NCBI RefSeq assembly: GCF_947631165.1
Contig: NZ_CANRKH010000011.1
Coordinates: 1 to 64,000 of the forward strand
DNA length: 64,000 nt
Reading direction: 5' to 3'
From: an uncultured Dysosmobacter sp.
GTDB lineage: Bacteria > Bacillota > Clostridia > Oscillospirales > Oscillospiraceae
In this document: positions 1,630-62,628 of the stretch, in pieces
Layout of the letters: each line of letters begins with the position of its first letter
How positions within the stretch are numbered: the first letter of the stretch is position 1
Made by a program: the position numbers and the translations under genes
Notes under the pieces: model-generated
What the model saw: the letters and a program-made list of their open reading frames with translations, nothing else
Told to the model about the DNA's origin: nothing
The model's database searches: none

Positions 1630-2823
1630 ATGGAACTGAAAGAATATCGCATCGAACGGCTGAAAGCTGCTGCCGCGGCTGCCGGCGCGGACATGATCGT
1701 GGCGACTCTGCCGGCTAACCTGAACTATATCACAACGGGATATGTCTGCATCAATCAGGATGTTTTGACCCGTGCGGAATGCGCCATTGGCTATATCCCG
1801 GCGCAGGACAAATATGTGTACATTGTTGGCTATGCGGATCTTCCCACTGTGTTGGAGTTCGCCGGCAATGATGCGGAGGTCTATTTTGCTGGCGGCGGCT
1901 TCTTCTTTGAAAAGGGCGCTGAAAACGATGAATTCGTAGACAAGATCATGGCCTATAAGGAAAAGGCCTATCCTACTACCGCAGACGCCTGGAACGCCGC
2001 CGTCCGTAGCAATCTGCCGGAGGGATCCACCATCGCCATTGATGAGAGCCGTATTTTTGCCAGCCAGTTAAAGGCTGTAGAGGCCAAGCTGTCCGGTTAT
2101 CAGGTCATCAATGCCACGGATCTGTTCATGGAGGCCCGCCTGATCAAGCATCCCGAGGAAGTGGCCGGTGTGGAGGCTTCCGCCCGCTGTGCAGCTGACT
2201 CTTTGATGGCTGCGCTGGCTCAGTTTGAGCCTGGCATGACGGAGTACCGCATTGGCGAGCTGTACAGCATCGAATTGGCCAAGCGGGGCGCCAAGCCCTA
2301 TTTTTGCACGGTGACGTCTCAGCTTCGTGCTGCGTTCTCCGATACGACCAACGACCGTGTCCGCCCCATTGTCAAGGGTGACATGATCCGCTTTGACTTT
2401 GGCTGCATCCTGAACGGCTATTGCTCTGATCTGGGCCGCTTCGCTGTGGTGGGCGAGCCGACGGATAAAATGCGGCAGTACTACACGGCTATCTGCGCCG
2501 GTCTGGACGCGGCTGTCGCCATCGCAAAGCCCGGCGTCACGGCAGGCGAGCTGTTCGACGCCGCCATGGATGCGGTCCGTAAGAACGGCCTGCCGCATTA
2601 TCGCCGTCATCACACGGGACATGGTATTGGCCTGGAGTGCTATGACAATCCCACCATTGCCCACGGCAATCCCATGCCCATTGTTGAAAATATGACCTTC
2701 AATCTGGAGACGCCCTACTATGAGTTGGGCTGGGGCGGCATGATGATCGAGGATACCTTTGCCATGACAGCCAACGGCGCCCGGATGCTGGACCATACGA
2801 CCCGGGATATGATCCTGCTGTAA
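1630..2823 (+). CDS. M24 family metallopeptidase (Xaa-Pro aminopeptidase-like)
   Basis: 397 aa from ATG 1630, preceded by an AGGAA ribosome site; the frame is open further upstream but that part overlaps the divergent gene and looks non-coding. An N-terminal creatinase-like domain (about 1-150) is followed by a pita-bread M24 domain. Metal ligands are visible: Asp256 and Asp267 (RFDFG...CSDLGR), His331 (HHTGHGIGLE), Glu360 (FNLETPYYE) and Glu374 (MMIEDTF). Expected to release N-terminal residues before proline from peptides in the cytoplasm; other M24B activities cannot be excluded. The last base of its TAA stop is the start of the palindromic element at 2824. Confidence 0.85.
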   Translation: MELKEYRIERLKAAAAAAGADMIVATLPANLNYITTGYVCINQDVLTRAECAIGYIPAQDKYVYIVGYADLPTVLEFAGNDAEVYFAGGGFFFEKGAENDEFVDKIMAYKEKAYPTTADAWNAAVRSNLPEGSTIAIDESRIFASQLKAVEAKLSGYQVINATDLFMEARLIKHPEEVAGVEASARCAADSLMAALAQFEPGMTEYRIGELYSIELAKRGAKPYFCTVTSQLRAAFSDTTNDRVRPIVKGDMIRFDFGCILNGYCSDLGRFAVVGEPTDKMRQYYTAICAGLDAAVAIAKPGVTAGELFDAAMDAVRKNGLPHYRRHHTGHGIGLECYDNPTIAHGNPMPIVENMTFNLETPYYELGWGGMMIEDTFAMTANGARMLDHTTRDMILL

Positions 2824-2872
2824 TACGATTTCCTGACAAAAAATCAGAAGATCGTTTTATCAGGGATTCGTA
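2824..2872. mobile_element. TAC...GTA palindromic element, short form (family 1, copy A)
   Basis: 49 bp, nearly fully palindromic: it starts TACGATTTCCTGA and ends TCAGGGATTCGTA. On the left it is bounded by TAA, which is the stop codon of the M24 peptidase; on the right by TAT, so its presumed TNA target duplication is one base off. Same family as copies at 10384, 20422, 33007, 39950 and 62543; closest to the short copy at 62543. Confidence 0.75.
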
Positions 2873-2877
2873 TATTG

Positions 2878-2920
2878 CCTCCGGCGAGTTTATACTCGCC
2901 GGGGGCTTTTCCCTTTTGAC
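2878..2920 (+). terminator. Rho-independent terminator after the M24 peptidase
   Basis: CCGGCGAGT (2881-2889) pairs with ACTCGCCGG (2894-2902) around a TTAT loop, followed by GGGCTTTTCCCTTTT. A T8 run at 2961-2968 lies in the same gap. Confidence 0.8.
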
Positions 2921-3023
2921 GGCAGATCAAAGCCAACGGGCAGAAGCCTCTGGCGGCCGTTTTTTTTGAAAACACACTGCATGCAGGGAGATCAGGCGGG
3001 AAAAGCGGGGCTGCCGGGTATTT

Positions 3024-3605
3024 TTACAGAAACAGCCGCACCGCGCACCAGACCATCAGCAGGGCCATGACCTTGTTGACGATGGCGGCATGCCGGGAGA
3101 ACAGGACCCGCAGAAGCGAGCCGAACCCCGCCCAGCACAGGTTCAGGCAGAATCCCAGGAAAGCCAGCAGCAGGGCGAAGAGCAGTAAATGCACCGGCTG
3201 CCCCTGGTACAGCGGCAGCACGAAGCTCTGCATGGACACGATGCAGTAGATGTAGATCTTGGGATTGACGAACTGGAGAAAAAACCCGTCCCGAAAGCCG
3301 GACCGGGCGGCGGTGTTGTCGCCAATAGCGCCCGCCCGCCAGGTTTTCCAGGCCAGGTATAGGATGTAGCAGGCCCCCAGCACCAGCATGGGCGTCCGAA
3401 TGGCGGGGATCAGGGCCTCCAGCGTGCTGCACAGCAGGGTGCAGGCCACGGAGACAATGGAAAATCCCGCCCAGATGCCGAAGGTATAGGGCAGTGTCCG
3501 CCAAAAGCCCAGACGGCTGCCGTTGGACAGGGAGGACAGGGTGTTGGGCCCCGGTGTCCCGGCGGTGACCAGGACATAAAGAAAAAATCGTGCCCAGGGA
3601 AACAT
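3024..3605 (-). CDS. LysE/RhtB family amino-acid exporter
   Basis: 193 aa, about six hydrophobic membrane segments. The family signature is present: TPGPN near residue 18 and the NPK motif in FLQFVNPKIYIY. These proteins export amino acids such as lysine, threonine or homoserine lactone; the substrate cannot be told from sequence. The start at 3605 has GGAGGT a few bases upstream. It stands alone between the peptidase gene and the FakA-like gene, separated from the latter by a strong hairpin. Confidence 0.85.
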   Translation of the reverse strand: MFPWARFFLYVLVTAGTPGPNTLSSLSNGSRLGFWRTLPYTFGIWAGFSIVSVACTLLCSTLEALIPAIRTPMLVLGACYILYLAWKTWRAGAIGDNTAARSGFRDGFFLQFVNPKIYIYCIVSMQSFVLPLYQGQPVHLLLFALLLAFLGFCLNLCWAGFGSLLRVLFSRHAAIVNKVMALLMVWCAVRLFL

Positions 3606-3627
3606 GGATTACCTCCTGAATTGTGAT

Positions 3628-3665
3628 ATGAAACCCGCCTGGACATCCATTCAGGCGGGTTTCAT
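3628..3665 (-). terminator. 14-bp perfect hairpin between fakA-like and lysE-like genes
   Basis: ATGAAACCCGCCTG (3628-3641) pairs with CAGGCGGGTTTCAT (3652-3665). It lies just past the stop of the fakA-like gene on the minus strand. No T-run follows on that strand, so termination is likely but not certain; it also sits in the leader of the lysE-like gene. Confidence 0.55.
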
Positions 3666-3675
3666 AAGCAAGTGC

Positions 3676-5349
3676 TTATTCCATAGAGACGATATAGTAG
3701 TAAACGGGCTGTCCGCCGGAGAGGACCGCGATCTCCGCGTCGGGGCAGGCGGCCTTAAAAAGCTGCCCGGCCTTTTGAGCGTCGGACTCGGACACGTCCT
3801 CGCCGAAATACAGGGAGATGAAGCTGGCCTCCCGCTCCACAGCGTCCGCCGCCAGCTTGTGCAGCAGAGCGTCCAGGTCGCTGTCGGTGCCGAAGAGCTT
3901 GCCCTCCTCCAGGGCCAGATAATCGCCCGCCTTGATGTCGAAGCCGTCAAAGTCGGAATCCCGGGCGGCGTAGGTGATCTGGGCGGTGGTGACGGTGGAG
4001 AGGCTCTCCGTCATGGCGTCGGTGATGGTCTGGGCGTCCGGAGCCTCAAAGTCCACGTTCATCATGGCGGTGATGCCCTGGGGCACTGTCTTGGTGGGGA
4101 TGACCACCACGTTTTTCTCCGTCAGCACGCCGCACTGCTGGGCGGCCATGATGATATTGCCGTTGTTGGGCAGGATGAACACGGTCTCGGCGGGGATCTT
4201 CTCGACCCCTGCCAGAATGCTCTCCGTGGAGGGATTCATGGTCTGTCCGCCGGATACCACGCCGTCGGCCCCCAGATCCTTAAAGACCGCCGCCAGGCCG
4301 TCGCCGGCGCAGACCGCCAGGAAGCCATAGGGCTTCTCCGGCGCGGCGGGGGCCTCGCCCCGTTCCAGCTCTTCCTCGACAGCGTCCAGGTCGTCAGTGC
4401 TCTGCGCCTGCCGGCCGGCGGCCAGATCCTCCGCCTGGGTGCGCATGTTCTCGATCTTGGCCAGCTCCAGCGTACCGTATTTCTGGGCCTCCATCAGAGC
4501 TGCGCCGGGGATATCGGTATGGACGTGGACCTTGAATGCCTCGTCGTCCTCGCCGATGACCAGGCTGTCACCGATGCTGTTCAGGTATTCCCGGAAAGGC
4601 TCCAGGGGCTTATCCACCGTCTTGCGGACGATGAACACCGTGTCGAAGGTGAAAGTGATGTCCTCCAGGCCCAGGGCGGCGAAGTCCGCCTTTTCCTGAA
4701 CGGATTCCTCCTCGGCTGGCTCCGGCAGAGGTTCGCCCCGCAGAGCGGCCAGCATCCCCTCCAGGATCAGCAGGTAGCCCTTGCCGCCGGCGTCCACCAC
4801 GCCGGCCTTTTTCAGCACCGGATTCATGTCGGTGGTCTGAGCCAGGGTTTCGTAGCCCTCCTTCAAAGCCGCCTCCAGCACCGTCTCCAGGTCTTTGACG
4901 CCTTGAGCGGCGGTCTCGGCGGCCCGCTTGGCCGCCAGCCGGGAAACGGTGAGCACCGTACCTTCGGCAGGCTTCATCACCGCCTTATAGGCGGCGGACA
5001 CGCCCTCCTGCATGGCGGCGGCAAAGGCGGCGGCGTCGGCGGTCTCTCTGCCTTTCAGACCCTTGGAGATGCCCCGGAACAGCAGGGACAGGATGACGCC
5101 GGAATTGCCCCGGGCGCCCCGCAGCAGGGCGGAGGCGGTGACGTCGGCTGCCTTGGACAGCGTGGGAGGCTCGGCCTTCCGCAGCTCCGCCACAGCAGCG
5201 CCGATGGTCATGGACATATTGGTGCCGGTGTCTCCGTCAGGCACGGGGAACACGTTCAAATCGTTGATGCCCTGCTTCTGGGCGGTGATAACGGCGGCGC
5301 CGTGGAGCACCATCTGCTTGAACAGGGCGCCGGTGATCAGTTCGTTCAT
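3676..5349 (-). CDS. fakA: DAK2 domain protein, FakA/YloV-like fatty-acid kinase subunit
   Basis: 557 aa, the normal length for the DAK2-DegV-like fusion family. The N-terminal DAK2 domain holds NVFPVPDGDTGTNM (about residues 28-41), which supplies the metal/ATP-binding aspartates. A central region and a C-terminal EDD-like region follow. FakA transfers phosphate from ATP to fatty acids presented by a FakB (DegV-type) protein for phospholipid synthesis; no fakB is in the window. Start at 5349 with GGGAGGT upstream. It follows the yloU-like gene by 16 bp, the conserved yloU-yloV arrangement, so the two are co-transcribed. Confidence 0.9.
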   Translation of the reverse strand: MNELITGALFKQMVLHGAAVITAQKQGINDLNVFPVPDGDTGTNMSMTIGAAVAELRKAEPPTLSKAADVTASALLRGARGNSGVILSLLFRGISKGLKGRETADAAAFAAAMQEGVSAAYKAVMKPAEGTVLTVSRLAAKRAAETAAQGVKDLETVLEAALKEGYETLAQTTDMNPVLKKAGVVDAGGKGYLLILEGMLAALRGEPLPEPAEEESVQEKADFAALGLEDITFTFDTVFIVRKTVDKPLEPFREYLNSIGDSLVIGEDDEAFKVHVHTDIPGAALMEAQKYGTLELAKIENMRTQAEDLAAGRQAQSTDDLDAVEEELERGEAPAAPEKPYGFLAVCAGDGLAAVFKDLGADGVVSGGQTMNPSTESILAGVEKIPAETVFILPNNGNIIMAAQQCGVLTEKNVVVIPTKTVPQGITAMMNVDFEAPDAQTITDAMTESLSTVTTAQITYAARDSDFDGFDIKAGDYLALEEGKLFGTDSDLDALLHKLAADAVEREASFISLYFGEDVSESDAQKAGQLFKAACPDAEIAVLSGGQPVYYYIVSME

Positions 5350-5365
5350 CTGACTGCTACCTCCC

Positions 5366-5716
5366 TCACAGGGTCATGGAATCGACGCACACGTCCACAG
5401 CGCGGACGGCGACGCCGGTGTTTTTGGTCACCACATAGCGGACCTCGTTCATGATGGACCGGCACACTGCGGGGAGGTTGACGCCGTTCTCCACGATGAT
5501 GTGCAGCTCGATGGAGACGGAGTTATCGTCGTGATAGGTGACGCTGACGCCCTTGCTCATGGCCTCCCGCCGCAGCAGGTGGACCAGGCCGTCGGTCATA
5601 GAGCGGTAGGCCATGCCCTTGACGCCGAAGCAGTTGGTGGCGGCCATGCCGGTGATGTTGGAGAACACGGCGCCGCTGACGGAGATCTCGCCTAGTTCAG
5701 ATGTGAAATGGATCAT
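5366..5716 (-). CDS. Asp23/Gls24 family envelope stress protein (YloU-like)
   Basis: 116 aa from ATG 5716, which has AAGGA 8 bases upstream; a longer reading to 5824 would run into the promoter and is rejected. Contains the Asp23/Gls24 fold: an alternating hydrophobic pattern around GEISVSGAVFSNI and a C-terminal half ending in VRAVDVCVDSM. No membrane segment. Members are abundant small proteins associated with the envelope and fatty-acid kinase locus; the biochemical role is unknown. First gene of the operon with the fakA-like gene. Confidence 0.85.
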   Translation of the reverse strand: MIHFTSELGEISVSGAVFSNITGMAATNCFGVKGMAYRSMTDGLVHLLRREAMSKGVSVTYHDDNSVSIELHIIVENGVNLPAVCRSIMNEVRYVVTKNTGVAVRAVDVCVDSMTL

Positions 5717-5795
5717 GAGAACATCCTTTCCTTCCCGGTCATTCTGAAGCAGGCGGCGGAGCCGCCTTTTCTGACGCGCAGTTTTTGAGGACTTT

Positions 5796-5824
5796 ATTAT
5801 ATACGATTCTTTCGCAAAGTACAA
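5796..5824 (-). promoter_or_regulatory. SigA-type promoter of yloU-fakA operon
   Basis: On the minus strand, TTGTAC (5819-5824), a 17-bp spacer, then a perfect TATAAT (5796-5801), about 80 bp before the yloU-like start. A GGCGGC/GCCGCC hairpin lies in the leader around 5750-5768. Confidence 0.75.
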
Positions 5825-6264
5825 GTAGAAAAAGTCCGTCTCCCGTTTGAAATGCTCGCCGCAGGGTCAGATCTCCGGCGAGCTGCTGAAACGGTTTGCC
5901 GATGCGCGGCCTCATGCGGCGTCCGGCGGCCCCGGTTCATGTCAAGCCCTGCGGAGGCGCTCCCGCGTCGTAAGACGGCATACATAGACAGCTGCTATCC
6001 TGCTAAAATAAAGGGAAATATATGGAAAACCGCTCGGAAACATGATATACTCGACCCAAGCAGCCGAGCGATAAAGGCGGATTTAATCGGGAGAAAACAC
6101 GAGGGCCCAAATCATAAAAAACGATTCACTTCCAGTTTCCCGGAGAGACAGCAGACCTTACCGCGGATCACGGCGGGATCGCCCGAAAGCGGCTCCGGGG
6201 AGGCGGACGGGCGGCCCCGGTGCCGAAATCGGCAAAAAAGCTGGAAAAAGGCGGCGGCATCCTA
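5825..6264. other. Non-coding gap between yloU and rsmD promoters
   Basis: About 440 bp with no credible gene: the open frames have no ribosome site, no domain pattern and Arg/Ser-rich composition typical of shadows. One long-range inverted repeat (CGCTCGG near 6031, CCGAGCG near 6066) encloses a possible TATACT. Function not evident. Confidence 0.5.
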
Positions 6265-6293
6265 TTGAAATCAGCGGCGGGATGTCCTAAAAT
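6265..6293 (+). promoter_or_regulatory. SigA-type promoter of rsmD operon
   Basis: TTGAAA (6265-6270), 17-bp spacer, TAAAAT (6288-6293), 43 bp before the rsmD start. Confidence 0.7.
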
Positions 6294-6336
6294 AATAAAC
6301 TGAGAAACCGCCGGAGAGGGCGGAGGAGGATGGACC

Positions 6337-6894: not shown

Positions 6895-6906
6895 GGGAAC
6901 GGCCCT

Positions 6907-8760: not shown

Positions 8761-9708
8761 ATGGAATATACCCACAAGCCGGTTCTGCTGGACGAGTGCG
8801 TCGACGCGCTGCACATCCGCCCTGACGGAGTCTATGTGGACGGGACCCTGGGCCGCGCGGGACACAGCCGGGAGATCGCCAAACGATTGACCACCGGCCG
8901 TCTGATCTGCATCGACCGGGACATGGCCGCTATCGACGCGGCCAAGGAGCGGCTGGCCCCCTGGATGGACCGGGTGACGCTGGTGCACAGCAACTTTTCT
9001 GAATTGGGACAGGTCCTGCGGGCCGCCGGGGTCACCGGCGCTGACGGGATGCTGTTTGACCTGGGCGTGTCCTCTCCCCAGCTGGACGACGCCTCCCGGG
9101 GCTTTTCCTATATGCAGGACGCCCCGCTGGATATGCGGATGGACACCTCTGCCCCCCTCACTGCCCATGAGGTGGTGAACGGCTGGAGCTGTGAGGAGCT
9201 GCGCCGCATCCTGTTTGAATACGGCGAGGAGCGCTATGCGCCCGCCATTGCCAAAGCCATCGTCCGGGCGCGGGAGACTGCGCCTGTGGCCACCACGCTG
9301 GAGCTGGTGGCGATCATCAAAAGCGCTATGCCTCCGGCGGCCCTGCGGGAGAAACAGCACCCTGCCAAGCGCAGCTTTCAGGCCATCCGCATCGCTGTCA
9401 ACGGCGAGCTGGACGCCCTGCCGCCTATGCTGACGGCGGCGGTGGAGGGACTGGCCCCCGGCGGGCGGCTGGCGGTCATCACATTCCATTCGCTGGAGGA
9501 TCGCGTGGTCAAGCGCCGCATGGCGGAGCTGGCCAGGGGCTGCACTTGCCCGCCGGAGTTTCCGGTGTGCGTGTGCGGCAATAAGCCGAAGATCAAGGTG
9601 CTGACCCGCAAGCCCATCGTCTCCGGCGGGGCGGAGCTGGCGGAGAACCCCCGCGCGCGCAGCGCAAAATTACGCGTGGCGGAGAAATGCGATCCATTGG
9701 ATATTTGA
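8761..9708 (+). CDS. rsmH: 16S rRNA (cytosine(1402)-N4)-methyltransferase
   Basis: 315 aa, normal length. Starts YTHKPVLLDECVDAL; SAM motif YVDGTLGRAGHSREI near residue 25; LFDLGVSSPQLDD near 98; C-terminal ITFHSLEDRVVK. Methylates N4 of C1402 in 16S rRNA; the partner 2'-O enzyme RsmI is also encoded in this window (40119-40949). Second gene of the cluster. Confidence 0.95.
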   Translation: MEYTHKPVLLDECVDALHIRPDGVYVDGTLGRAGHSREIAKRLTTGRLICIDRDMAAIDAAKERLAPWMDRVTLVHSNFSELGQVLRAAGVTGADGMLFDLGVSSPQLDDASRGFSYMQDAPLDMRMDTSAPLTAHEVVNGWSCEELRRILFEYGEERYAPAIAKAIVRARETAPVATTLELVAIIKSAMPPAALREKQHPAKRSFQAIRIAVNGELDALPPMLTAAVEGLAPGGRLAVITFHSLEDRVVKRRMAELARGCTCPPEFPVCVCGNKPKIKVLTRKPIVSGGAELAENPRARSAKLRVAEKCDPLDI

Positions 9709-9762
9709 TATGGGGGACAAGCCCCCTGTTTGTAAAGATCTGGAGGAAGGGAGGAGTTCACT

Positions 9763-10317
9763 GTGGCATCCACAGCGCGGGAACTGCGCTATCAGAGCCG
9801 GTCCGCTGTCAACGGCAGCCTGGCCTATGATCTGGATTACGCGGTCCGGGAACGGGAACTGCGCCACGCCGGCGAACTCCCCCGCCGCCAAGAGCAGGAG
9901 AAGGCGAAGGTCCGCAGCATTCCCAAGGTCCAGCTGCGGGAGCGGCAGCGGGTGTCCGTCCTCTCTGTACTGGGCACTGCGGCCATCATGGGGCTGGCAG
10001 TCCTGGTGCTGATGAGCTACATCCAGCTGACGGTCCTCTCCGCCGAGACAGTGGAGCTGAAAAGCCAGCTGAGCACTCTGGAGACGGAGAACGTGACCCT
10101 CACCGCGGAATACGAGCAGATCTTCGATCTGGCCACCGTGAAGGAGGCCGCCGAGGCCGCCGGGATGTCCAAGCCCAGCAGCAGCCAGATCTTTTACATC
10201 GACCTGTCCGGCGGGGACAGCGCCGTGGTGTACCGGCAGGAGGACCCCAGCGTGCTGGATCGGGTGTTGACGTCCCTGAACCACGGCGTCTACGCGGTGG
10301 TGGAATATTTCGACTGA
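9763..10317 (+). CDS. ftsL: Cell division protein FtsL-like
   Basis: 184 aa from GTG 9763, supported by GGAGGAAGGGAGGAG immediately upstream. Basic cytoplasmic N-terminus of about 65 residues, one membrane segment (about 68-90, VLSVLGTAAIMGLAVLVLMS), then a short extracellular coiled coil (VELKSQLSTLETENVTL). Position between rsmH and the PBP gene fits FtsL, which bridges FtsQ/DivIB and DivIC and helps activate FtsW-PBP at the septum. The cytoplasmic part is long for FtsL. Confidence 0.8.
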   Translation: MASTARELRYQSRSAVNGSLAYDLDYAVRERELRHAGELPRRQEQEKAKVRSIPKVQLRERQRVSVLSVLGTAAIMGLAVLVLMSYIQLTVLSAETVELKSQLSTLETENVTLTAEYEQIFDLATVKEAAEAAGMSKPSSSQIFYIDLSGGDSAVVYRQEDPSVLDRVLTSLNHGVYAVVEYFD

Positions 10318-10374: not shown

Positions 10375-10383
10375 CGCCTGTCA

Positions 10384-10528
10384 TACTATTTCCTGATCAA
10401 AAACATTCAAAAAGTTTTTGATTGCGGCGCACAGGAAAAGTATGGACGTTCATCGCAGGCGGCTTTGCCGCCGGGGCCGCTTGTGCGGCCCCCATAAAAC
10501 AAGAAAATTGTTTTATGCGTGATTCGTA
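10384..10528. mobile_element. TAC...GTA mosaic element, long form (family 1, copy B)
   Basis: 145 bp flanked by TCA on both sides (10381-10383 and 10529-10531), a perfect 3-bp TNA target duplication. Internal order: AAAAACATTC/AAAGTTTTT hairpin, GGAAAAGTATGGACG core, GGCGGCTTTGCCGCC, GGGGCCGC/GCGGCCCC, ATAAAACAA/TTGTTTTAT. Splits ftsL from the PBP gene; the only one of the six copies not at a stop codon. Confidence 0.8.
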
Positions 10529-10584
10529 TCAGAGGGGAGCGGTCCCGCTGGTGGGCGGCAAAACGGCTCCAAGGAGGAAAAACC

Positions 10585-19638: not shown

Positions 19639-20421
19639 ATGGCCAGACGAAGACATTCCAAACGGCGGCGCAGAGGAAGCTTCAGCTTCCTCTATAAGCT
19701 GCTGTCTACGCTGGTGATCTGCGGGGCCATCATCTTGGCGCTGACCCTGTTTTTCCGGGTCGATACCATCCTGGTGACGGGCCAGGAACGCTACACCGCC
19801 GAGGAGGTGGCGGCGGCCACCGGCGTGGAGATCGGCGACAACCTGTATCTTTTGAACAAAAACCGGGTCGCCAACAACATTCTGGCGGCGCTGCCCTATA
19901 TCGAGCATATCCATCCCTACCGCCGCCTGCCGGACACCCTGGTGATCGAGGTGACGGAGTGCGGGACCCCGCTGGCGGTGGTGCAGGACGGCAGCGCGTG
20001 GCTCATCAGCCCCAGCGGCGACCCCGGCGGCAAGATCGTGGAGCAGAAGGATGATGCCGCGGCGGCGGATTACGGCGTGATCGACGGCTGCCAGCTGCTG
20101 GCTCCCACCGTGGGTACGCCCCTGGCCCTGGCCACGGAGTACGCCGGCCAGCAGACCAGCCTGCTGGCCCTGATGAAAGCCCTCTATGAGGCGGACATGA
20201 TCGACGATGTGGACGCCATCCATCTGGCGGACTTGTCCATGCTGACGCTGGATTACGCCGGACGATTCACTGTGCAGCTGCCCTACGGCGCGGACTACGC
20301 CCAAAAGCTGAAGACGCTGCGGCTGATCCTGGAGGGGGAGGCTATTCAGGACAATATGACCGGCACTTTCGACATGCGAAAGGACAGCGGCCGCATCCCC
20401 TTCAAGCAAAACGTGCGCTGA
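19639..20421 (+). CDS. ftsQ: Cell division protein FtsQ/DivIB
   Basis: 260 aa. Arg-rich cytoplasmic N-terminus, single membrane segment (about 15-37), then a POTRA domain (DTILVTGQERYTAEEV...) and a beta domain outside the cell. Scaffold of the divisome with FtsL and DivIC. The TGA stop (20419-20421) is one flank of a TAC...GTA element, so the element begins immediately after the stop. Confidence 0.9.
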   Translation: MARRRHSKRRRRGSFSFLYKLLSTLVICGAIILALTLFFRVDTILVTGQERYTAEEVAAATGVEIGDNLYLLNKNRVANNILAALPYIEHIHPYRRLPDTLVIEVTECGTPLAVVQDGSAWLISPSGDPGGKIVEQKDDAAAADYGVIDGCQLLAPTVGTPLALATEYAGQQTSLLALMKALYEADMIDDVDAIHLADLSMLTLDYAGRFTVQLPYGADYAQKLKTLRLILEGEAIQDNMTGTFDMRKDSGRIPFKQNVR

Positions 20422-20589
20422 TACGCATCACTTATAAAACAATTTTATTGTTTTATTGGGGCCGCGTAAGCGGCCCCGGCGGCAAAGCCGCTTGTGAGGA
20501 ACGTCCATACTTTTCCTGCGCGCCGTAGGCGCGGCGGCGCAATGCGCCGCAATCAAAAACTTTTTAAAGTTTTTTGTCAGGAAACAGTA
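20422..20589. mobile_element. TAC...GTA mosaic element, long form (family 1, copy C, inverted)
   Basis: 168 bp flanked by TGA on both sides (20419-20421 and 20590-20592). The left TGA is the ftsQ stop codon. Orientation is opposite to copies B, D and E. Contains ATAAAACAATTTTATTGTTTTAT, GGGGCCGC/GCGGCCCC, GGCGGCAAAGCCG, the reverse of the GGAAAAGTATGGAC core, GCGGCGCAATGCGCCGC and AAAAACTTT/AAAGTTTTTT. Lies between ftsQ and ftsZ. Confidence 0.85.
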
Positions 20590-20591
20590 TG

Positions 20592-20627
20592 AATTGGAAG
20601 AGCGGCGGCACCGCTCTTCCAATTTTT
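20592..20627 (+). terminator. Terminator before ftsZ
   Basis: AATTGGAAGAGCGG (20592-20605) and CCGCTCTTCCAATT (20611-20624) form a 14-bp stem followed by TTTTTG. It ends the ftsQ transcript, leaving ftsZ on its own promoter. Confidence 0.85.
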
Positions 20628-32493: not shown

Positions 32494-33006
32494 ATGGATT
32501 TTGCAAAGCTGTCCGCGGAGCGGTATTCCCTCCGCAAATTCAGTGACCGGCCTGTGGAGGAGGAGAAGCTGGCCTTGGTCCTGGAGGCGGGCCGCAGCGC
32601 CCCTACCGCCCACAACAACCAGCCCCAGCGCATCTTCGTGCTGCGTTCGCCGGAGGCCATGGAGAAGGCCGACGGCTGCACCAGCATGCACTTTCATCCG
32701 CCGGTGATGCTGGTGGCGGCCTATGACCCCGCCGCGGCCTGGGTCCGGGAGCACGACGGCAAAAACCACGGCGAGATCGACGCCGCCATCGCCGTGACCC
32801 AGATGATGCTCCAGGCGGCGGACCTGGGCCTGGGCACCACCTACATCGGTGTGTTTGAGCCGGAGAAGCTGCTGGCGGCCTTCCCGGAGATGGCGGGCCT
32901 GACGCCCATTGCCATGCTGCCCCTGGGCTACCCGGCGGAGGATGCCCATCCCTCCCGGCGCCACACGGTCCGCAAGCCCATGGAGGAGCTGGTAAAGGTC
33001 CTGTAA
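32494..33006 (+). CDS. Nitroreductase family protein
   Basis: 170 aa. FMN-binding Arg/Ser pattern RYSLRKFSDRPV at the N-terminus, SAPTAHNNQPQRI near residue 35, and the family end PLGYPAE. No ferredoxin part. Reduces nitro-aromatics or quinones with NAD(P)H in vitro in this family; physiological substrate unknown. Single gene; its TAA stop (33004-33006) is the left target triplet of a TAC...GTA element. Confidence 0.87.
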   Translation: MDFAKLSAERYSLRKFSDRPVEEEKLALVLEAGRSAPTAHNNQPQRIFVLRSPEAMEKADGCTSMHFHPPVMLVAAYDPAAAWVREHDGKNHGEIDAAIAVTQMMLQAADLGLGTTYIGVFEPEKLLAAFPEMAGLTPIAMLPLGYPAEDAHPSRRHTVRKPMEELVKVL

Positions 33007-33174
33007 TACTGTTTCTTTGAAAAAAACTTTAAAAAGTTTTTTATCACGGCGCAATGCGCCGCAGCGCCTACGGCACACAAGAAAAGTATTGACAACATTC
33101 TTGGGCGGCTACGCCGCCAGACCGCTTACAGCGGCCTCGATAAAGCGATTAAATCGTTTTATCGAGAATTAGTA
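33007..33174. mobile_element. TAC...GTA mosaic element, long form (family 1, copy D)
   Basis: 168 bp flanked by TAA on both sides (33004-33006 and 33175-33177). The left TAA is the nitroreductase stop. Hairpin chain: AAAAACTTT/AAAAGTTTTTT, GCGGCGCA/TGCGCCGC type, GGCGGCTACGCCGCC, CCGCTTACAGCGG, TAAAGCGATTAAATCGTTTTA. Core reads GAAAAGTATTGAC, more diverged than copies B, C and E. Confidence 0.85.
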
Positions 33175-33270
33175 TAAAAGAGAAATGCAGGCAGCTCGCG
33201 GGACGTTTTCGTGCCATGCCCGCCGTCCTTTCGCGGAGATGCACCTCGCACCTGTCCCATGAAAAACAGA

Positions 33271-33305
33271 GGGAGACCGCCCACAGGCGGTCTCCCGTTA
33301 TTTTT
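33271..33305 (+). terminator. Terminator downstream of nitroreductase and copy D
   Basis: GGGAGACCGCC (33271-33281) pairs with GGCGGTCTCCC (33286-33296), then GTTATTTTT. A TA-bounded element starts at the end of its T-run. Confidence 0.8.
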
Positions 33306-33469
33306 AGGGAACCTCTGATTAAATCGGGATGTGCGGATTGGCAGGCAGTTTTTTTGCCTGCCAAGAAAGAAAAGTGCAGGAATCCTGACGGATTTCAAAC
33401 TTTTCTGACGCAGTTCAGGCGGAAAAATGTTGCCGAGACGTGCGTCACGATTTAATCAGAGGTTCCCTA
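33305..33469. mobile_element. 165-bp MITE-like element with 22-bp perfect inverted ends
   Basis: Left end TAGGGAACCTCTGATT... (33305-33326) is exactly complementary to the right end (33448-33469). Both ends begin with TA, consistent with a TA target duplication. Inside: GGCAGGCA/TGCCTGCC hairpin, no coding frame. Sits between the terminator and the stop of the dacF-like gene. Confidence 0.8.
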
Positions 33470-33477
33470 GATATCCT

Positions 33478-39949: not shown

Positions 39950-40118
39950 TACTGTTTCCTGATAAAAAACTTTAAAAAAGTTTTTTGCGGCGCATCGCGC
40001 CGCCGCGCCTACGTCGCGCGGGAAAAGTATGGACTTTCATCACAGGCGGTTTCGCCGCCGGGGCCGCATAAGCGGCCCCAATAAAACAATTTCATTGTTT
40101 TATGAGTGATTATTAGTA
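39950..40118. mobile_element. TAC...GTA mosaic element, long form (family 1, copy E)
   Basis: 169 bp flanked by TCA on both sides (39947-39949 and 40119-40121). The right TCA is the TGA stop codon of rsmI on the minus strand. Hairpins: AAAAAACTTT/AAAGTTTTTT, GCGGCGCATCGCGCCGC, GGCGGTTTCGCCGCC, GGGGCCGC/GCGGCCCC, ATAAAACAA/TTGTTTTAT, with the GGAAAAGTATGGAC core. Confidence 0.87.
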
Positions 40119-40949
40119 TCACCGCTCCAGTGCGGCGGCGTACAGCTCGTTTTTGGAAAGGCCGGTGTGCTGGGCCACCTCCTTGGCGGCGTCCTTCAGG
40201 CGGAGGCCCTGTTCCTTCAGCGCCAGCACCTGGGCCACGCCGTCCTCCAGTGTGACGGCGGCTTCCGTGCTGGGGGCGGCGCCGGCCACCACCAGCACAT
40301 ACTCGCCCTTGGGAGCGTTTTCGGCATAATAGGCCGCGGCCTCTCCCAGCGTGCAGCGGCGGGTCTCCTCGTGGAGCTTGGTCAGCTCCCGGCACAGGGC
40401 AACCCGCCGGTCCGGCCCGAAGGCGGCGGAGAGGTCCTCCAGCGTGGTCCGCAGCTTGTGAGGGGCCTCGTGGAAGATCATGGTCCGCTGTTCGTTTTTC
40501 AGGCTGTCCAGATGCTCCCGGCGGCTCTTTTTGTTGACGGTCAGAAAGCCCTCGAAGGTGAACCGCCCGGTGGGCAGTCCGCTGACGGCCAGGGCGTTCA
40601 CCGCGGCACAGCAGCCGGGGATGGACAGCACCTCCACACCGTTTTCGGCGCACAGCCGCACCAGGTCCTCGCCGGGGTCGGAGATGGCGGGCGTCCCGGC
40701 GTCGGTCACCAGGGCGCAGGACTCCCCCGCCAGCAGCCGGGCCAGGATGGCCTGCCCTGCGGTGATGTGGTTGTGCTCGTGATAGCTGACCAGGGGCCTT
40801 TTGATGGCGAAGTGATTCAGCAGCTTTACGGATACCCGGGTGTCCTCCGCCGCGATGAAATCCACGGTCTCCAGCGTCTCCACCGCCCGGGGAGAGAAGT
40901 CCCCCAGGTTACCGATGGGAGTGGCGACCAGATACAGCGTGCCGCTCAT
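40119..40949 (-). CDS. rsmI: 16S rRNA (cytidine(1402)-2'-O)-methyltransferase
   Basis: 276 aa from ATG 40949 (GAGGA upstream). The reading frame stays open into the upstream gene, but the family starts at GTLYLVATPIGNLGDFSPRA. Motifs: AAEDTRVSVKLLNHF, LVTDAGTPAISDPG and SIPGCCAAVNAL. Uses SAM to methylate the ribose of C1402, complementing RsmH. ATG overlaps the stop of the upstream methyltransferase. Its own TGA stop is the target triplet of a mosaic element. Confidence 0.95.
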   Translation of the reverse strand: MSGTLYLVATPIGNLGDFSPRAVETLETVDFIAAEDTRVSVKLLNHFAIKRPLVSYHEHNHITAGQAILARLLAGESCALVTDAGTPAISDPGEDLVRLCAENGVEVLSIPGCCAAVNALAVSGLPTGRFTFEGFLTVNKKSRREHLDSLKNEQRTMIFHEAPHKLRTTLEDLSAAFGPDRRVALCRELTKLHEETRRCTLGEAAAYYAENAPKGEYVLVVAGAAPSTEAAVTLEDGVAQVLALKEQGLRLKDAAKEVAQHTGLSKNELYAAALER

Positions 40950-42972: not shown

Positions 42973-43068
42973 TGCTGCAAAGAGCAAACCGTCTGAAAGG
43001 GCGGGACGCAAAGCCTGGGGGCTAAAACGGAGAGCGCCAAAGATCCTGTCACACCGGCTCGGCCAGCA
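42973..43068 (+). ncRNA. Cyclic-di-GMP-I (GEMM) riboswitch
   Basis: The conserved core is clear: GAGCAAACC, a CCGTCT/AGGGCGG helix capped by a GAAA tetraloop, GGGACGCAAAGCC, and the GGGGGCTAAAACGG receptor side. Outer helix P1 may be TGCTG (42973-42977) with CAGCA (43064-43068). It ends 34 bp before the start codon of the surface protein gene; TTTCC at 43072-43076 could pair with the AAGGAGG ribosome site, so translational control is plausible (inference). Confidence 0.88.
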
Positions 43069-43102
43069 GGCTTTCCATCAAAAAGAAAAGGAGGTTGAAA
43101 AA

Positions 43103-57716: not shown

Positions 57717-57738
57717 GGTGTGTGCTCCTTTGTTTCGC

Positions 57739-59787
57739 TCAATTCAGCGTGTCTTCATTTTGGGTAAACAGCTCTGCAATCCGCTCCGCGGTGGCGGGGC
57801 AGCGCTTCAGTTCCGGGTCTGCCGCCAGCAGGGTCTCTGCCGCCGCCTGGGCCTCCTTCAAAAGCTGGGTATCACAGCCGATATCGGCGATCCGCAGCCC
57901 CGGCAATCCGTGCTGCCGCTGGCCGAAAAAGTCGCCGGGACCCCGCAGACGCAGATCCTCCTCTGCAATCTTAAAGCCGTCGGTGGTCCTGGTCATGACC
58001 TTCAGCCGCTGCCGGGTCTCCTCGCTGCGGTTGTCGGAGATGAGGATGCAGTAGGACTGGTGCTTGCCCCGGCCCACCCGGCCCCGGAGCTGGTGGAGCT
58101 GGCTCAGGCCGAAGCGCTCCGCGTTCTCGATCACCATCACCGCCGCGTTGGGCACGTCGACCCCCACCTCGATGACGGTGGTGGATACCAGAATGTCTGT
58201 CTCATGGGCGGCAAAGGCTGTCATCACCGCGTCCTTCTCCTTTGGCTTCATCCTGCCGTGGACGAAGGCTACCTTCAAATCGGGAAACACTTGAGTTTGC
58301 AGCATGCTGGCGTATTCCGTCACGGCCTTCCGCTCGTCGGGCAGCTCGTCGTTTCCCTCCACCATGGGGCAGACGATATAGGCCTGCCGGCCCTCCGCCG
58401 CCAGCTTGCGGATAAAATTGTAGATCCGGGGGTGGTAGCTGCCGGGAACGGCGTAAGTCTCGATGGGCCGCCGTCCCGGAGGGAGCTGGTCAATGATGGA
58501 GACCTCCAGGTCGCCGTACAGGATCAGCGCCAGGGTCCGGGGAATGGGGGTCGCGGACATGACCAGGGTGTGGGGATGCTCCCCTTTGCCCGCCAGGGCT
58601 GCCCGCTGGGCCACGCCGAAACGGTGCTGTTCATCCGTCACCACCAGACCGAGATCGGCGTATTCCATGCCGCCGGTGATGAGGGCGTGGGTCCCGATGG
58701 CGAAGTCGATCTCCCCCGCCGCCAGCTGGGCGGCGATGGACCGTTTCGTTTTCATCGGGGTCGAGCCGGTCAGCAGGGCGCAGCGTATACCGAGATTTTC
58801 CATCAGCGGGGCCAGTCCCGCATAATGCTGCTGGGCCAGGATCTCCGTAGGGGCCATCAGGGCTGCCTGACGGCCGTTTTTTACCGCGAAATAGATGCAG
58901 GCGGCTGCCACCATGGTCTTGCCGGAGCCCACATCGCCCTGACACAGCCGGTTCATGGGGGTCCCGGACCGCATGTCCGCCAGGGCCTCGTCCACACACC
59001 GCTGCTGGGCGCTTGTCAGGGTAAAAGGCAGGATGCTGTAAAACGCATCCATATCCACTGCCTTGCAGGGGGGGACATGGACAACCTCCCGCCGCTGCCG
59101 CAGCCGCTTCAGGCCGATGGTGAACAAAAACAGCTCCTCAAAGGCCAGCCGCCGCCGGGCGATGTCCAGGGCCTCGGCGGACTCGGGAAAATGGATGTTC
59201 TCGTAAGCGTAATTGATCCGGCACAGGTGGCGTTCCTGCCGCACATCGTCCGGCAGCACGTCCGGCAGGATATCGGCGCAGGCGTCCAGACCCTGGCGGA
59301 TGGACCGGGACAGGACCAGCTGGCTGACGCCGGCGGTGAGGGGGTAGATGGGCACGATGCGCCCGGTGAACTCCCCCCGGCCCTCCCGCTCCACGATGGG
59401 GCTGGCCATGGTCTTGCGGAGAAGGTTCCCCTCCGCCCGGCCATAGAACACATAGGTCTCCCCCTGGGCCAGCTGGTTTTTCAGCCAAGTCTGGTTGAAA
59501 AAGGTCACGTCCAGCACGCCGCTCTCATCCACGGCCCGGACCTTTACCAGGTCCATGCCCTTTCGGATATGGGACACCGTGGGCGGGGATGCGATCATAG
59601 CTGCCACGCAGGCATACTCGCCGGGGACCAGGTCCGCGATGCGCCGGACCTGGGTGCGGTCGTCATATTTTCGGGGAAACCAGGAGATCAGGTCCCGCAG
59701 CGTGGCGATGCCCAGTTTGCCCAGGGCTTTGGCCCGCTGCTCGCCGATACCTTTGATATATCGCACGTCTGTGGACAGGTCCGCCAT
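57739..59787 (-). CDS. recG: ATP-dependent DNA helicase RecG
   Basis: 682 aa from ATG 59787 (GGGGGAG upstream; the frame is open to 60135 without support). N-terminal wedge/OB domain (IKGIGEQRAKALGKLGI), helicase motifs LCQGDVGSGKTMVAA (Walker A), DEQHRFG (DExH), MSATPIPRTLAL, and C-terminal LRGRVGRGKHQSYC. Remodels stalled forks and branched DNA. Length normal for the family. Confidence 0.95.
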   Translation of the reverse strand: MADLSTDVRYIKGIGEQRAKALGKLGIATLRDLISWFPRKYDDRTQVRRIADLVPGEYACVAAMIASPPTVSHIRKGMDLVKVRAVDESGVLDVTFFNQTWLKNQLAQGETYVFYGRAEGNLLRKTMASPIVEREGRGEFTGRIVPIYPLTAGVSQLVLSRSIRQGLDACADILPDVLPDDVRQERHLCRINYAYENIHFPESAEALDIARRRLAFEELFLFTIGLKRLRQRREVVHVPPCKAVDMDAFYSILPFTLTSAQQRCVDEALADMRSGTPMNRLCQGDVGSGKTMVAAACIYFAVKNGRQAALMAPTEILAQQHYAGLAPLMENLGIRCALLTGSTPMKTKRSIAAQLAAGEIDFAIGTHALITGGMEYADLGLVVTDEQHRFGVAQRAALAGKGEHPHTLVMSATPIPRTLALILYGDLEVSIIDQLPPGRRPIETYAVPGSYHPRIYNFIRKLAAEGRQAYIVCPMVEGNDELPDERKAVTEYASMLQTQVFPDLKVAFVHGRMKPKEKDAVMTAFAAHETDILVSTTVIEVGVDVPNAAVMVIENAERFGLSQLHQLRGRVGRGKHQSYCILISDNRSEETRQRLKVMTRTTDGFKIAEEDLRLRGPGDFFGQRQHGLPGLRIADIGCDTQLLKEAQAAAETLLAADPELKRCPATAERIAELFTQNEDTLN

Positions 59788-60022
59788 GAGAGCTCCCCCT
59801 TTCTTGCATCTCCAACATACGCATGATACCATGACTGGCGGAAAAAAACAAGGAAACTTCGGCGGCCTGGGGGATCTGCTTCCCTGGAGGGGGCGGAGAG
59901 GCGCTGGGCGAGTCTGCGGCCTCGCAGGTCTTACGGGATGTTTCCCAGCGCACAGCAGCCAGGGAACATGGATCTCTATTTTTCGCGCTGTGGTGTGAAC
60001 GCTGTAAGGCTTGGAACATATA

Positions 60023-60060
60023 AAAAGTGCCCGCCGGGAAAATTTCCGGCGGGCACTTTT
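60023..60060 (-). terminator. Terminator after folA
   Basis: AAAAGTGCCCGCCGG (60023-60037) pairs with 60046-60060, giving A/T runs on both sides. The rest of the recG-folA gap (59788-60022) shows no gene. Confidence 0.88.
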
Positions 60061-60070
60061 GCATACTATA

Positions 60071-60568
60071 TTAAATCTTTGTATTGATATAATCCACAAA
60101 ACGATAGGTAAATCCATTTTCTGTGATCGGCTCACCGGTCTGCTCCACCTCCCAGCCCGGCAGCTTATCCAGGTTGGGGAAGTAGGTGTCGGATTCCTCC
60201 ACCTGGGTCTCGACCCGGGTGAGGTAGACCCGTTCGCACCGGCTCAGAAGTGTGGCGTATACGCTGCCGCCGCCAATGATCCACAGCTTGTTGGGATCCT
60301 CGCTCTCCGTCATCTTCAGGGCTTCCTCAGTGCTGAACGCAACCTCGGCGCCCTCCCGGGAGAAGTCCGTGTTGTGGGTTATCACGATATTCCGCCGGTT
60401 GGGCAGGGGCCTTCCGCCGGGAAAGGACTCAAAGGTCTTGCGGCCCATGACAACGGTGCCGCCTGTGGTCATGGTACGGAAGCGCTTCATGTCCGTGGGC
60501 AGGGAGAACAGCAGCCCCCCCTCCAGGCCGATGGCCCAATTCTGATCGACGACGACGATGGCATTCAT
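60071..60568 (-). CDS. folA: Dihydrofolate reductase
   Basis: 165 aa from ATG 60568 (AAGGAGAG upstream). MNAIVVVDQNWAIGLEGGLLFSLPTDMKRF, VVMGRKTFESFPGGRPLPNR and IIGGGSVY are the NADPH and folate-binding parts. The substrate-site acid Asp30/Glu27 equivalent is Asp in LPTDMKRF. Regenerates tetrahydrofolate used by ThyA, whose gene lies 35 bp upstream in the same operon. Confidence 0.94.
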   Translation of the reverse strand: MNAIVVVDQNWAIGLEGGLLFSLPTDMKRFRTMTTGGTVVMGRKTFESFPGGRPLPNRRNIVITHNTDFSREGAEVAFSTEEALKMTESEDPNKLWIIGGGSVYATLLSRCERVYLTRVETQVEESDTYFPNLDKLPGWEVEQTGEPITENGFTYRFVDYINTKI

Positions 60569-60603
60569 GTTTCTGTCTCTCCTTCCAAAGCAAATCACAG
60601 GCG

Positions 60604-61434
60604 TCAGACCGCCACGGGGATCTTGTGGGCGAAGGGGGCGGGATCATAGCCCTCCAACCGGAAGTGGTCCTTGGTAAACTGGTAGAAATCTGTCACGGAG
60701 GGGTCCATCCACAGCTGGGGGGCCGCCTTGGGCTGCTGGCAGATCAGCTCTTCCACCATGGGGACATGGCGGTCATAGATGTGGCAGTCGGCAATGACGT
60801 GGACCAGCTCTCCGGGAACCAGGCCGCTGACCTGGGCGAACATATGCACCAGCAGGGCGTACTGCACCACGTTCCAGTTGCCCGCGGCCAGCATGTCCTG
60901 GCTGCGCTGGTTCAAAATGGCGTTCAGCACATTGCCGGAGACGTTGAAGGTCATAGAGTAGGCGCAGGGGGCCAGGTGCATCTCGCTGAGGTCGTGGTGG
61001 TTGAAGAGGTTGGTCAGGATGCGGCGGCTGGCGGGATTCTCCCGCAGGTCCTTCAAGACCCGGTCCACCTGGTCCATATCGCCGTCGGCGTAGTGGTGCT
61101 TCACGCCCATCTGATATCCGTAGGCCTTGCCGATGGAGCCGGTCTCGTCGGCCCACTGGTCCCAAACGTGGGAGCTGAGATCATGGATGTTATTGGACTT
61201 CTTCTGCCAGATCCACAGCAGCTCATCCAGGGCAGACTTCCAATAGGTGCGGCGGATGGTGAGGATGGGGAATTCCTCCCGCAGGTCATAGCGGTTGATC
61301 ACACCGAATTTTTTGATGGTGTGGGCGGGGCTTCCGTCCTCCCAGCGGGGGCGGACCTCCCGGTCGGTGTCCCAGACGCCGTTTTCCAGAATATCCCGGC
61401 AGGTCTGGATGAAGATGTCATCGGCGCGGCTCAT
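60604..61434 (-). CDS. thyA: Thymidylate synthase, B. subtilis ThyA type
   Basis: 276 aa. Nucleophile Cys in HLAPCAYSMTF, where the common PCH is PCA/PCV as in B. subtilis ThyA; RILTNLFNHHDL, NQRSQDMLAAGNWNVVQYALLVHM and the CHIYDRH loop follow. Converts dUMP to dTMP with methylene-tetrahydrofolate, yielding dihydrofolate for FolA. An extended -10 TGGTATACT lies upstream at 61478-61486 on the minus strand. Confidence 0.93.
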   Translation of the reverse strand: MSRADDIFIQTCRDILENGVWDTDREVRPRWEDGSPAHTIKKFGVINRYDLREEFPILTIRRTYWKSALDELLWIWQKKSNNIHDLSSHVWDQWADETGSIGKAYGYQMGVKHHYADGDMDQVDRVLKDLRENPASRRILTNLFNHHDLSEMHLAPCAYSMTFNVSGNVLNAILNQRSQDMLAAGNWNVVQYALLVHMFAQVSGLVPGELVHVIADCHIYDRHVPMVEELICQQPKAAPQLWMDPSVTDFYQFTKDHFRLEGYDPAPFAHKIPVAV

Positions 61435-61477
61435 GCGGATTCCTCCCTTGATATCATATTTTGCCTTTACTGAAGGT

Positions 61478-61486
61478 AGTATACCA
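61478..61486 (-). promoter_or_regulatory. Extended -10 promoter of thyA-folA
   Basis: Minus strand TGG-TATACT with no good -35 box, about 45 bp before the thyA start. Confidence 0.5.
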
Positions 61487-61574
61487 AATCCGGCGGCAGT
61501 TTGGTAGAGGGAATCTTACGGACTTTTACCCAAACTATTAAAAAAAATTTGCATGGTTTTGGAGGAATTTCTGA

Positions 61575-61603
61575 TTGTGCATCTGTAAAATGTGCGGTAA
61601 GAT
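61575..61603 (+). promoter_or_regulatory. Promoter of the AraC-type regulator gene
   Basis: TTGTGC (61575-61580), 17-bp spacer, TAAGAT (61598-61603). Confidence 0.6.
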
Positions 61604-61693
61604 GGGCGTATTGAAAAAGCGGCTCCGGACGGCGGCGCCAAATTACGACTTACAGAGCCGGCAAGAGACCGACGACAGAGAGGGGGACCTGAT

Positions 61694-62542
61694 ATGCTGG
61701 ATCGCAGCGAGGTGGGCAAGCGGGGCTATCTGAATGAGGATTTCCGCCTGTTCCACCTGAAGGACAGCCGCGCGCAGAAGCTGGATTACCACTACCACGA
61801 GTTCGATAAGCTGATCCTGCTGCTGAACGGCAAGGTCACCTATGTGGTGGAGGGCGTCACCTATTTTCTCCAGCCCTGGGACGTGCTGCTGGTACAGCAC
61901 AACATGATCCACCGGCCCATCATCGACCCGTCGGAGCCGTATGAGCGGGTCGTGATCTGGCTGGGCCGGGATTGGCTGGAGCAGCGGAGCGACCCGGGCG
62001 CGGCGCTGGACACCTGCTTTGACACCGCGCGCCAGCGGGGCTTCCACCTGCTGCGGACGGACGGAGAACGGCGGCTCCAATATATGCAGGTCATCCAGCG
62101 GCTGGAGGACGCGCTGCGCTCCACGGAGTTCGGGGCGGGCCGCATGGCGGATACCCTGTGCCAGCAGCTTTTGATCGCCGTCAACCGGGACCTGCTGCGC
62201 TCCCGCACCGCCGCGGAGGCGCAGGATAGCTACCGGATGGACCCGAAGATGGAGGAGATCCTGCAATACATCACCCAGAATCTGGATGGAGAGCTGTCGG
62301 TGGACGCGCTGGCGAAGCGGTTTTACCTGAGCCGGTACTATCTGATGCACCGGTTCAAGGCCGTCACCGGCTACACGGTCCACCAGTATATCAGTCAGAA
62401 GCGCCTGGTATGGGCGGGAGAGCTCATCCGCTCCGGCGTGCCGGTGATGAAGGCCGCCGAGCAGGCGGGCTTTCGGGAGTACTCCACCTTTCTCCGGGCT
62501 TTTCAGAATACCTTTCACATCAGTCCCCGTGAATTTCGGTAA
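61694..62542 (+). CDS. AraC family transcriptional regulator
   Basis: 282 aa. N-terminal cupin sensor (HYHEFDKLILLLNGKVTYVV) and C-terminal double helix-turn-helix (LAKRFYLSRYYLMHRFKAVTG, EQAGFREYSTFLRAFQNTF). Likely responds to a small molecule and could control the MATE gene 86 bp downstream; the ligand is unknown. Its TAA stop (62540-62542) is the left target triplet of a short TAC...GTA element. Confidence 0.9.
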   Translation: MLDRSEVGKRGYLNEDFRLFHLKDSRAQKLDYHYHEFDKLILLLNGKVTYVVEGVTYFLQPWDVLLVQHNMIHRPIIDPSEPYERVVIWLGRDWLEQRSDPGAALDTCFDTARQRGFHLLRTDGERRLQYMQVIQRLEDALRSTEFGAGRMADTLCQQLLIAVNRDLLRSRTAAEAQDSYRMDPKMEEILQYITQNLDGELSVDALAKRFYLSRYYLMHRFKAVTGYTVHQYISQKRLVWAGELIRSGVPVMKAAEQAGFREYSTFLRAFQNTFHISPREFR

Positions 62543-62589
62543 TACGATTTCCTGATAAAACGATTTGATCGTTTTACCAGGGATTTGTA
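62543..62589. mobile_element. TAC...GTA palindromic element, short form (family 1, copy F)
   Basis: 47 bp, a single near-perfect hairpin from TACGATTTCCTGATAAAACG to its inverted end ATTTGTA. Flanked by TAA on both sides (62540-62542, the AraC stop, and 62590-62592). Confidence 0.85.
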
Positions 62590-62628
62590 TAAGTAGACCA
62601 ACGCGCGGAAAAAGGAAGCAGAAACAAC

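What the first reader, a model, noticed from the sequence alone, without database searches (positions are those of the whole stretch)
2821..62592. A dispersed palindromic element family whose target triplet is the stop codon of the host gene
Six elements (2824-2872, 10384-10528, 20422-20589, 33007-33174, 39950-40118, 62543-62589) start with TAC, end with GTA and are flanked by TNA. Flanks: TCA/TCA, TGA/TGA, TAA/TAA, TCA/TCA, TAA/TAA for copies B-F (perfect 3-bp duplications) and TAA/TAT for copy A. In five of six the TNA is exactly a stop codon: M24 peptidase TAA, ftsQ TGA, nitroreductase TAA, rsmI TGA (minus strand), AraC TAA. Insertion with a TNA duplication regenerates the stop, so the event is silent for the protein and gives the mRNA a new structured 3' end. 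TNA target duplications are known for some IS5-family groups; stop-codon preference in a MITE family I have not seen described.
Basis: partly seen in the sequence, partly recalled or inferred. Interest (0 to 1): 0.85.

Follow-up and report, generated by a model that had tools for sequence, protein, structure and literature searches.

The report
Small transposon family favouring stop codons
A family of short, gene-free jumping DNA pieces in some gut bacteria lands at three-letter TNA sites, and about half of the intact copies sit exactly on a gene's stop codon, which the insertion duplicates and so preserves.

Summary
Six palindromic elements lie at the stated coordinates with TAC/GTA ends and TNA flanks (A: TAA/TAT); five sit on the stop of a Pfam-named gene. 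The family (F1) has about 36 copies in this genome and is patchy elsewhere.

Mobility is shown: 8 of 16 places in one genome have an uninterrupted sister site with a single TNA, and examined relatives lack copies E and F.

The stop bias is real but partial. 47 of 96 places with equal TNA flanks are exactly on a called stop. Against random TNA in the same intergenic gaps it is 45 of 78 versus 22.2 expected (P 2e-11). Two later sets were weaker: 3 of 10 versus 1.8 and 4 of 9 versus 2.6. Another MITE in this genome gave 0 of 13. Orientation flips with the stop: the left end faces TAA stops (33 of 37), the right end TGA stops (9 of 10), so the DNA triplet, not the gene direction, is probably read. 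No transposase was found, and targeting is not fully separated from selection.

The parts
2821..2875 (+). Copy A: TAA stop of M24 peptidase (2821-2823), 49-bp element 2824-2872, right flank TAT 2873-2875
   Evidence: RNA fold z -4.55
10381..10531 (+). Copy B: TCA, 145-bp element 10384-10528, TCA; not at a stop, in the gap before a penicillin-binding protein
   Evidence: RNA fold z -6.41
20419..20592 (-). Copy C: TGA stop of FtsQ-like gene (20419-20421), 168-bp element 20422-20589, TGA; element on minus strand
33004..33177 (+). Copy D: TAA stop of nitroreductase (33004-33006), 168-bp element 33007-33174, TAA
39947..40121 (+). Copy E: TCA, 169-bp element 39950-40118, TCA 40119-40121 = TGA stop of rsmI-like gene (minus strand); two examined relatives run across the site without it
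   Evidence: RNA fold z -7.34
62540..62592 (+). Copy F: TAA stop of AraC-type gene (62540-62542), 47-bp element 62543-62589, TAA; nine examined relatives run across the site without it
   Evidence: RNA fold z -6.25

Best explanation
F1 is a non-autonomous DNA transposon (MITE) family. Shown: it inserts at TNA, duplicates the 3 bp, and about half of the copies with equal flanks lie exactly on a called stop codon; at sites that are empty in a sister genome the same single triplet is present. Inferred: an unidentified transposase supplied in trans recognises the TAC...GTA ends and an asymmetric triplet, TAA or TCA read toward the left end. TAA and TGA stops match this triplet in opposite orientations, so both are good targets. 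Duplicating TNA rebuilds the stop, so these insertions leave the protein unchanged and persist. The excess over neighbouring TNA sites suggests target choice as well as tolerance, but its cause is not known.
For: 97 rows (96 places; L037 repeats L274) with equal TNA flanks in 19 genomes: TAA 68, TCA 18, TTA 10, TGA 1; 9 further near-perfect ends lacked equal TNA flanks. 8 of 16 places of one genome have an uninterrupted sister site with one TNA. Examined relatives lack copies F and E. Stop excess in matched gaps 45 of 78 versus 22.2, convergent gaps 24 of 31 versus 10.35, stop odds 7 to 8.7, the last after triplet class, flank bases and position. Per available site: stop 43 of 91, next 1-15 nt 2 of 40 (Fisher P 7e-7). 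Left end faces the gene at 33 of 37 TAA stops and 1 of 10 TGA stops. Control MITE F2: 0 of 13 at stops, 4 of the 13 being nested in F1 copies.
Against: Later sets: 3 of 10 versus 1.76 (P 0.24), 4 of 9 versus 2.61 (P 0.11), Pyramidobacter 4 of 11 versus 1.82 (P 0.044; 3 places shared with the main set). CANAQK 6 of 16 and JAETOQ 3 of 6 are not significant alone, and CANRMB has 0 of 3. The gene caller is home-made and missed copy E. 13 of 97 rows called 'inside' a gene and 6 without both neighbours were left out of the gap test; left ends without a right end within 256 bp were left out altogether. 2 of 14 held-out copies lie 6 nt inside a gene's 3' end. No transposase found. In Pyramidobacter 10 of 22 pairs have unequal flanks, 8 of them still TNA on both sides.
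Confidence: 0.72

Rival explanations
1. No target preference beyond TNA/TWA: selection removes insertions in coding DNA, terminators, promoters and ribosome-binding sites, and stop codons are left over as the safest sites.
For: Stops alone account for an expected 22.2 of 78 in these compact gaps. Keeping the triplet class raises the expectation to 28.7 of 75. Held-out sets are only mildly enriched.
Against: Still 43 of 75 versus 28.7 in the same triplet class. TNA 1-15 nt past the stop should be about as safe but took 2 of 40. 5 of 8 polymorphic copies are already at called stops, one of them a weak 35-codon ORF. F2 shows 0 of 13.
Confidence: 0.3
2. The enzyme senses translation or mRNA ends, that is, it finds the gene's stop through the ribosome or through RNA.
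For: Position is exact to the codon at about half of the places.
Against: Orientation relative to the gene flips with the stop triplet (left end toward the gene at 33 of 37 TAA stops, 1 of 10 TGA stops), which fits DNA-triplet reading and not a sense-strand cue. About half of the places are not at stops.
Confidence: 0.06
3. The elements are fixed regulatory RNA or terminators that arose in place and are not mobile.
For: Strong predicted folding, for copy E on both strands.
Against: Empty sites with a single TNA and relatives without copies E and F; equal TNA flanks. No Rfam family reaches its gathering score at the window's elements.
Confidence: 0.02

Closest known systems
YPAL / RU-2 of Yersinia (De Gregorio et al. 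2006, seen only through passages of PMC2229807 and PMC2759123)
   Same: About 168 bp, palindromic, intergenic, target duplications, empty and filled sites, perhaps acting on stability of upstream transcripts (passages). That YPAL tends to lie closely downstream of stop codons is recalled from its abstract, not read here.
   Different: YPAL duplications vary from 3 to 26 bp and its termini lack TA (PMC2229807). F1 has a fixed TNA duplication and often lies on the stop codon itself. No sequence comparison was made.
MITEs such as RUP, Correia/NEMIS and ERIC (passages of PMC2229807, PMC3733652)
   Same: Small, non-coding, inverted repeat ends, target duplications, next to genes.
   Different: RUP sites contain TA (PMC2229807); F1 uses TNA and favours stops.
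IS5-family groups with TNA duplications (ISL2, IS1031; recalled, from no call)
   Same: 3-bp TNA duplication.
   Different: F1 ends TACTRTTTCYTGATAAAA were on none of the 5 PF01609 loci found in 7 genomes.
REP elements and RAYT (IS200-like) transposases (passages of PMC3733652)
   Same: Palindromic repeats with hairpins.
   Different: F1 makes a duplication. 9 Y1_Tnp loci from 7 of 11 genomes were not flanked by F1 ends; this genome and the two with about 50 left-end matches each have no Y1 match.

Membership tests
MITE (non-autonomous DNA transposon) | Short, multi-copy, no transposase gene | tested here: met
   47-220 bp, about 36 elements in this genome
MITE (non-autonomous DNA transposon) | Inverted terminal repeats | tested here: met
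   TAC/GTA in nearly all; imperfect longer repeats; perfect in L279, near-perfect in the Pyramidobacter copies
MITE (non-autonomous DNA transposon) | Target site duplication and empty sites | tested here: met
   96 places with equal TNA flanks; 8 of 16 empty sister sites
MITE (non-autonomous DNA transposon) | A parent element with the same ends and a transposase | tested here: not met
   Scan of the loci held (to L323) for 450-4500 bp pairs; of the pairs listed only the 860-bp one in L296 was read in full, and it holds a NUDIX-like ORF. Genomes are drafts, later loci were not scanned.
IS5 family derivative | TNA duplication | tested here: met
   that this marks ISL2/IS1031 is recalled
IS5 family derivative | Ends shared with an IS5-type transposase gene | tested here: not met
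   PF01609 in 3 of 7 genomes, 5 loci, none with F1 ends; PF13359 and other DDE families not tested
YPAL | Sequence relationship to YPAL | not tested
   No YPAL sequence was fetched
REP/RAYT | Y1 transposase flanked by the repeat | tested here: not met
   9 loci examined, none flanked by F1 ends

The most novel reading that the evidence does not exclude
A DNA transposon family whose transposase has evolved a gene-end target preference: it reads TAA/TCA in a fixed orientation, so that both TAA and TGA stops are preferred landing sites, and the duplication restores the stop, giving a site that is both frequent and harmless.
Probability: 0.4. Interest if true: 0.75.

Novelty: new variant of a known kind. 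Interest (0 to 1): 0.58.

Why it matters
MITEs usually avoid harm by landing between genes. Here about half of the copies with equal flanks sit on the stop codon itself and rebuild it, close to the safest place in a gene. If this is target choice by the enzyme, it gives a natural example of, and a possible tool for, DNA insertion exactly at gene ends without protein change. It also puts potentially structured RNA after stop codons in several genomes, testable for effects on mRNA levels.

Tried and rejected
Autonomous partner: scans for paired ends with equal TNA at 260-4500 bp (loci to L139) and 450-4500 bp (loci to L323), inspection of unpaired ends, PF01609, Y1_Tnp PF01797, viral contigs (two hits, one a true element copy), plasmids (best E 3 among the 20 rows listed of 112 records). 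None found. A viral-contig search with the NUDIX-like ORF of the 860-bp element gave 9 loci at 29-39% identity, not followed. Rfam: one match in the window at gathering threshold, not at the elements; sub-threshold matches taken as chance. The second repeat family F2 (TACCCTCAGT...) first looked like kin because of its TAC ends; alone it shows no TNA duplication and fits a TA duplication, so it was used as a control. A first gene-calling set (28 of 62 at stops) was replaced by a larger one. One search crashed and was rerun. Literature: searches listed no paper on a stop-codon-targeting MITE; only open-licence papers are held and I saw listings and passages only. An even draw of 394 genomes of the order found the exact left end only in the window's own genome, so no further independent set came from there.

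Full report
OBSERVATION. The left-end pattern occurs 7 times in the window against 0.02 expected. Five of six lie with the TNA on the stop of a gene named by Pfam; for example RsmI_C runs to residue 477 of 478 and HTH_18 of copy F's gene to the last residue, so these look like native ends. Copy B is not on a stop.

THE FAMILY (F1). A pattern search gave 37 matches in the 3.16-Mb genome, not all real. A sequence model gave 34 matches at E below 1e-8, two of which are one element, so 33 elements; with the short copies A, F and one on contig C42 this makes about 36. The usual long form is about 168 bp with several predicted hairpins; short forms are 47-49 bp. An alignment of 16 long copies is. 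Spread is patchy: exact left end in 6 of 61 genomes of the genus, own included, and 1 of 394 drawn from the order, the own one. Interiors differ between lineages while ends are shared.

MOBILITY. 97 rows with equal TNA on both sides were collected: TAA 68, TCA 18, TTA 10, TGA 1. One row (L037) is the same place as another (L274), so there are 96 places in 19 genomes. The search required equal flanks; 9 near-perfect ends without equal TNA flanks were printed, among them window copy A, F2-interrupted copies and one (L260) whose true right end was found later. Left ends without a right end within 256 bp (truncated, at contig ends, or mirrored) were left out. Between two related genomes (G061, G062) 17 rows, 16 places, were examined: 8 have an uninterrupted sister site with one TNA, 7 have both flanks present but apart, and the remaining place (two rows) gave no match there but is occupied. 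For window copy F nine of the relatives examined, and for E two, run across the junction without the element (14 loci examined at base level, more matches were listed than examined; for B, C and D no locus examined ran across, and A was not in the query).

STOP CODONS. A codon-usage gene caller was trained per genome and gives plausible genes in the window, though it missed rsmI next to copy E on the joined site. On joined empty sites 47 of 97 rows are exactly on a called stop, 37 are elsewhere between genes, and 13 are called inside a gene, 12 of them within 200 nt of the called 5' end and one 13 nt inside a 3' end. With both neighbours known and the copy not inside, 45 of 78 are at stops against 22.2 expected if any TNA of the same gap were equally likely; exact P 1.8e-11. 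Convergent gaps: 24 of 31 versus 10.35; tandem: 21 of 40 versus 11.89; divergent 0 of 7. After dropping 3 orthologous duplicates, 43 of 75 versus 28.7 within the same triplet class, and stop odds of 8.7 after triplet class, flank bases, nearness to a start and nearness to a stop (likelihood ratio P 1e-8). Available stops were hit 43 of 91 times, TNA in the next 1-15 nt 2 of 40. Two later sets were weaker: 3 of 10 versus 1.76 (12 copies found) and 4 of 9 versus 2.61 (14 copies found), together 7 of 19 versus 4.37, P 0.059. Pyramidobacter: 4 of 11 versus 1.82 (12 of 22 pairs had equal TNA; 3 places also in the main set). The second MITE of this genome, F2, gave 0 of 13, four of which are nested in F1 copies. 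So the bias is strong in the main set, differs between genomes, and is not a rule.

ORIENTATION. At TAA stops the left end faces the gene in 33 of 37; at TGA stops in 1 of 10 (Fisher P 5e-6). The element therefore follows the triplet (A or C as middle base read toward its left end), not the direction of the gene. This speaks for recognition of DNA and against a role that needs one RNA strand. Both strands of copy E fold equally well (z -7.34 and -7.11).

MECHANISM. Shown: TNA duplication, empty sites, stop excess, orientation rule. Inferred: movement by a transposase supplied in trans. Open: why a stop is hit about ten times as often as a TNA a few bases on. Selection could contribute, since terminators and start regions fill the gaps, but 5 of the 8 polymorphic copies are already at called stops, one of them a weak 35-codon ORF. 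Whether the stop is in frame in the sister genome was not called separately; the triplet is the same and the aligned stretches are 79-96% identical there.

PARENT ELEMENT. None found (see Tried and rejected). By eye, native hairpin-T-run terminators remain downstream of copies A and C, so the element would sit in the 3' untranslated RNA. An effect on mRNA is only plausible, by analogy with YPAL.

KNOWN WORK. In PMC2229807 (passages), YPAL/RU-2 has duplications of 3 to 26 bp and might affect upstream transcripts; PMC3733652 (passages) states that MITEs are often next to coding sequences and can stabilise mRNA or speed its decay; PMC10969869 (passages) has no occurrence of 'stop codon'. The searches listed no report of a MITE whose TNA duplication is the stop codon.

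On recounting I changed: elements in this genome from about 37 to about 36, 97 copies to 97 rows at 96 places, 8 of 17 to 8 of 16, and the F2 control now says that 4 of 13 are nested. None of these changes the odds.

Noticed in passing
L140-L169 (own genome), L002, L021, L022, L027, L148: A second repeat family, ends TACCCTCAGTGGACAAAGGGCAAC, about 155 or 272 bp, 34 end matches; fits a TA duplication and abuts or lies in the terminal TA of F1 copies in five loci.
   Followed up: partly
L296 minus strand (0-based 9413-10273 of the reverse complement): An 860-bp TAA-flanked element with F1-like ends that holds a NUDIX-like ORF.
   Followed up: partly
G069 loci L396-L425 and others (Pyramidobacter): 10 of 22 element pairs have unequal flanks, 8 of them TNA on both sides with a different middle base, which suggests recombination between copies.
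   Followed up: no
several loci, e.g. L288, L112, L222, L304, L345: Several non-stop insertions have TAA directly before a Shine-Dalgarno-like GGAGR.
   Followed up: partly
window 33300-33343 and 33431-33474: Inverted pair GGGAACCTCTGATTAAATCG..., probably another repeat family; a similar stretch lies by L222.
   Followed up: no
window 42973-43070: c-di-GMP-I riboswitch (Rfam RF01051) by a long ORF with 15-base DVPDP-type repeats.
   Followed up: no
L395 (viral contig): An F1 copy in a viral contig, flanks TAA and TAG.
   Followed up: no
L010, L076, L303: F1 right ends replaced by another end, AACCTGTAT..., in two genomes.
   Followed up: no
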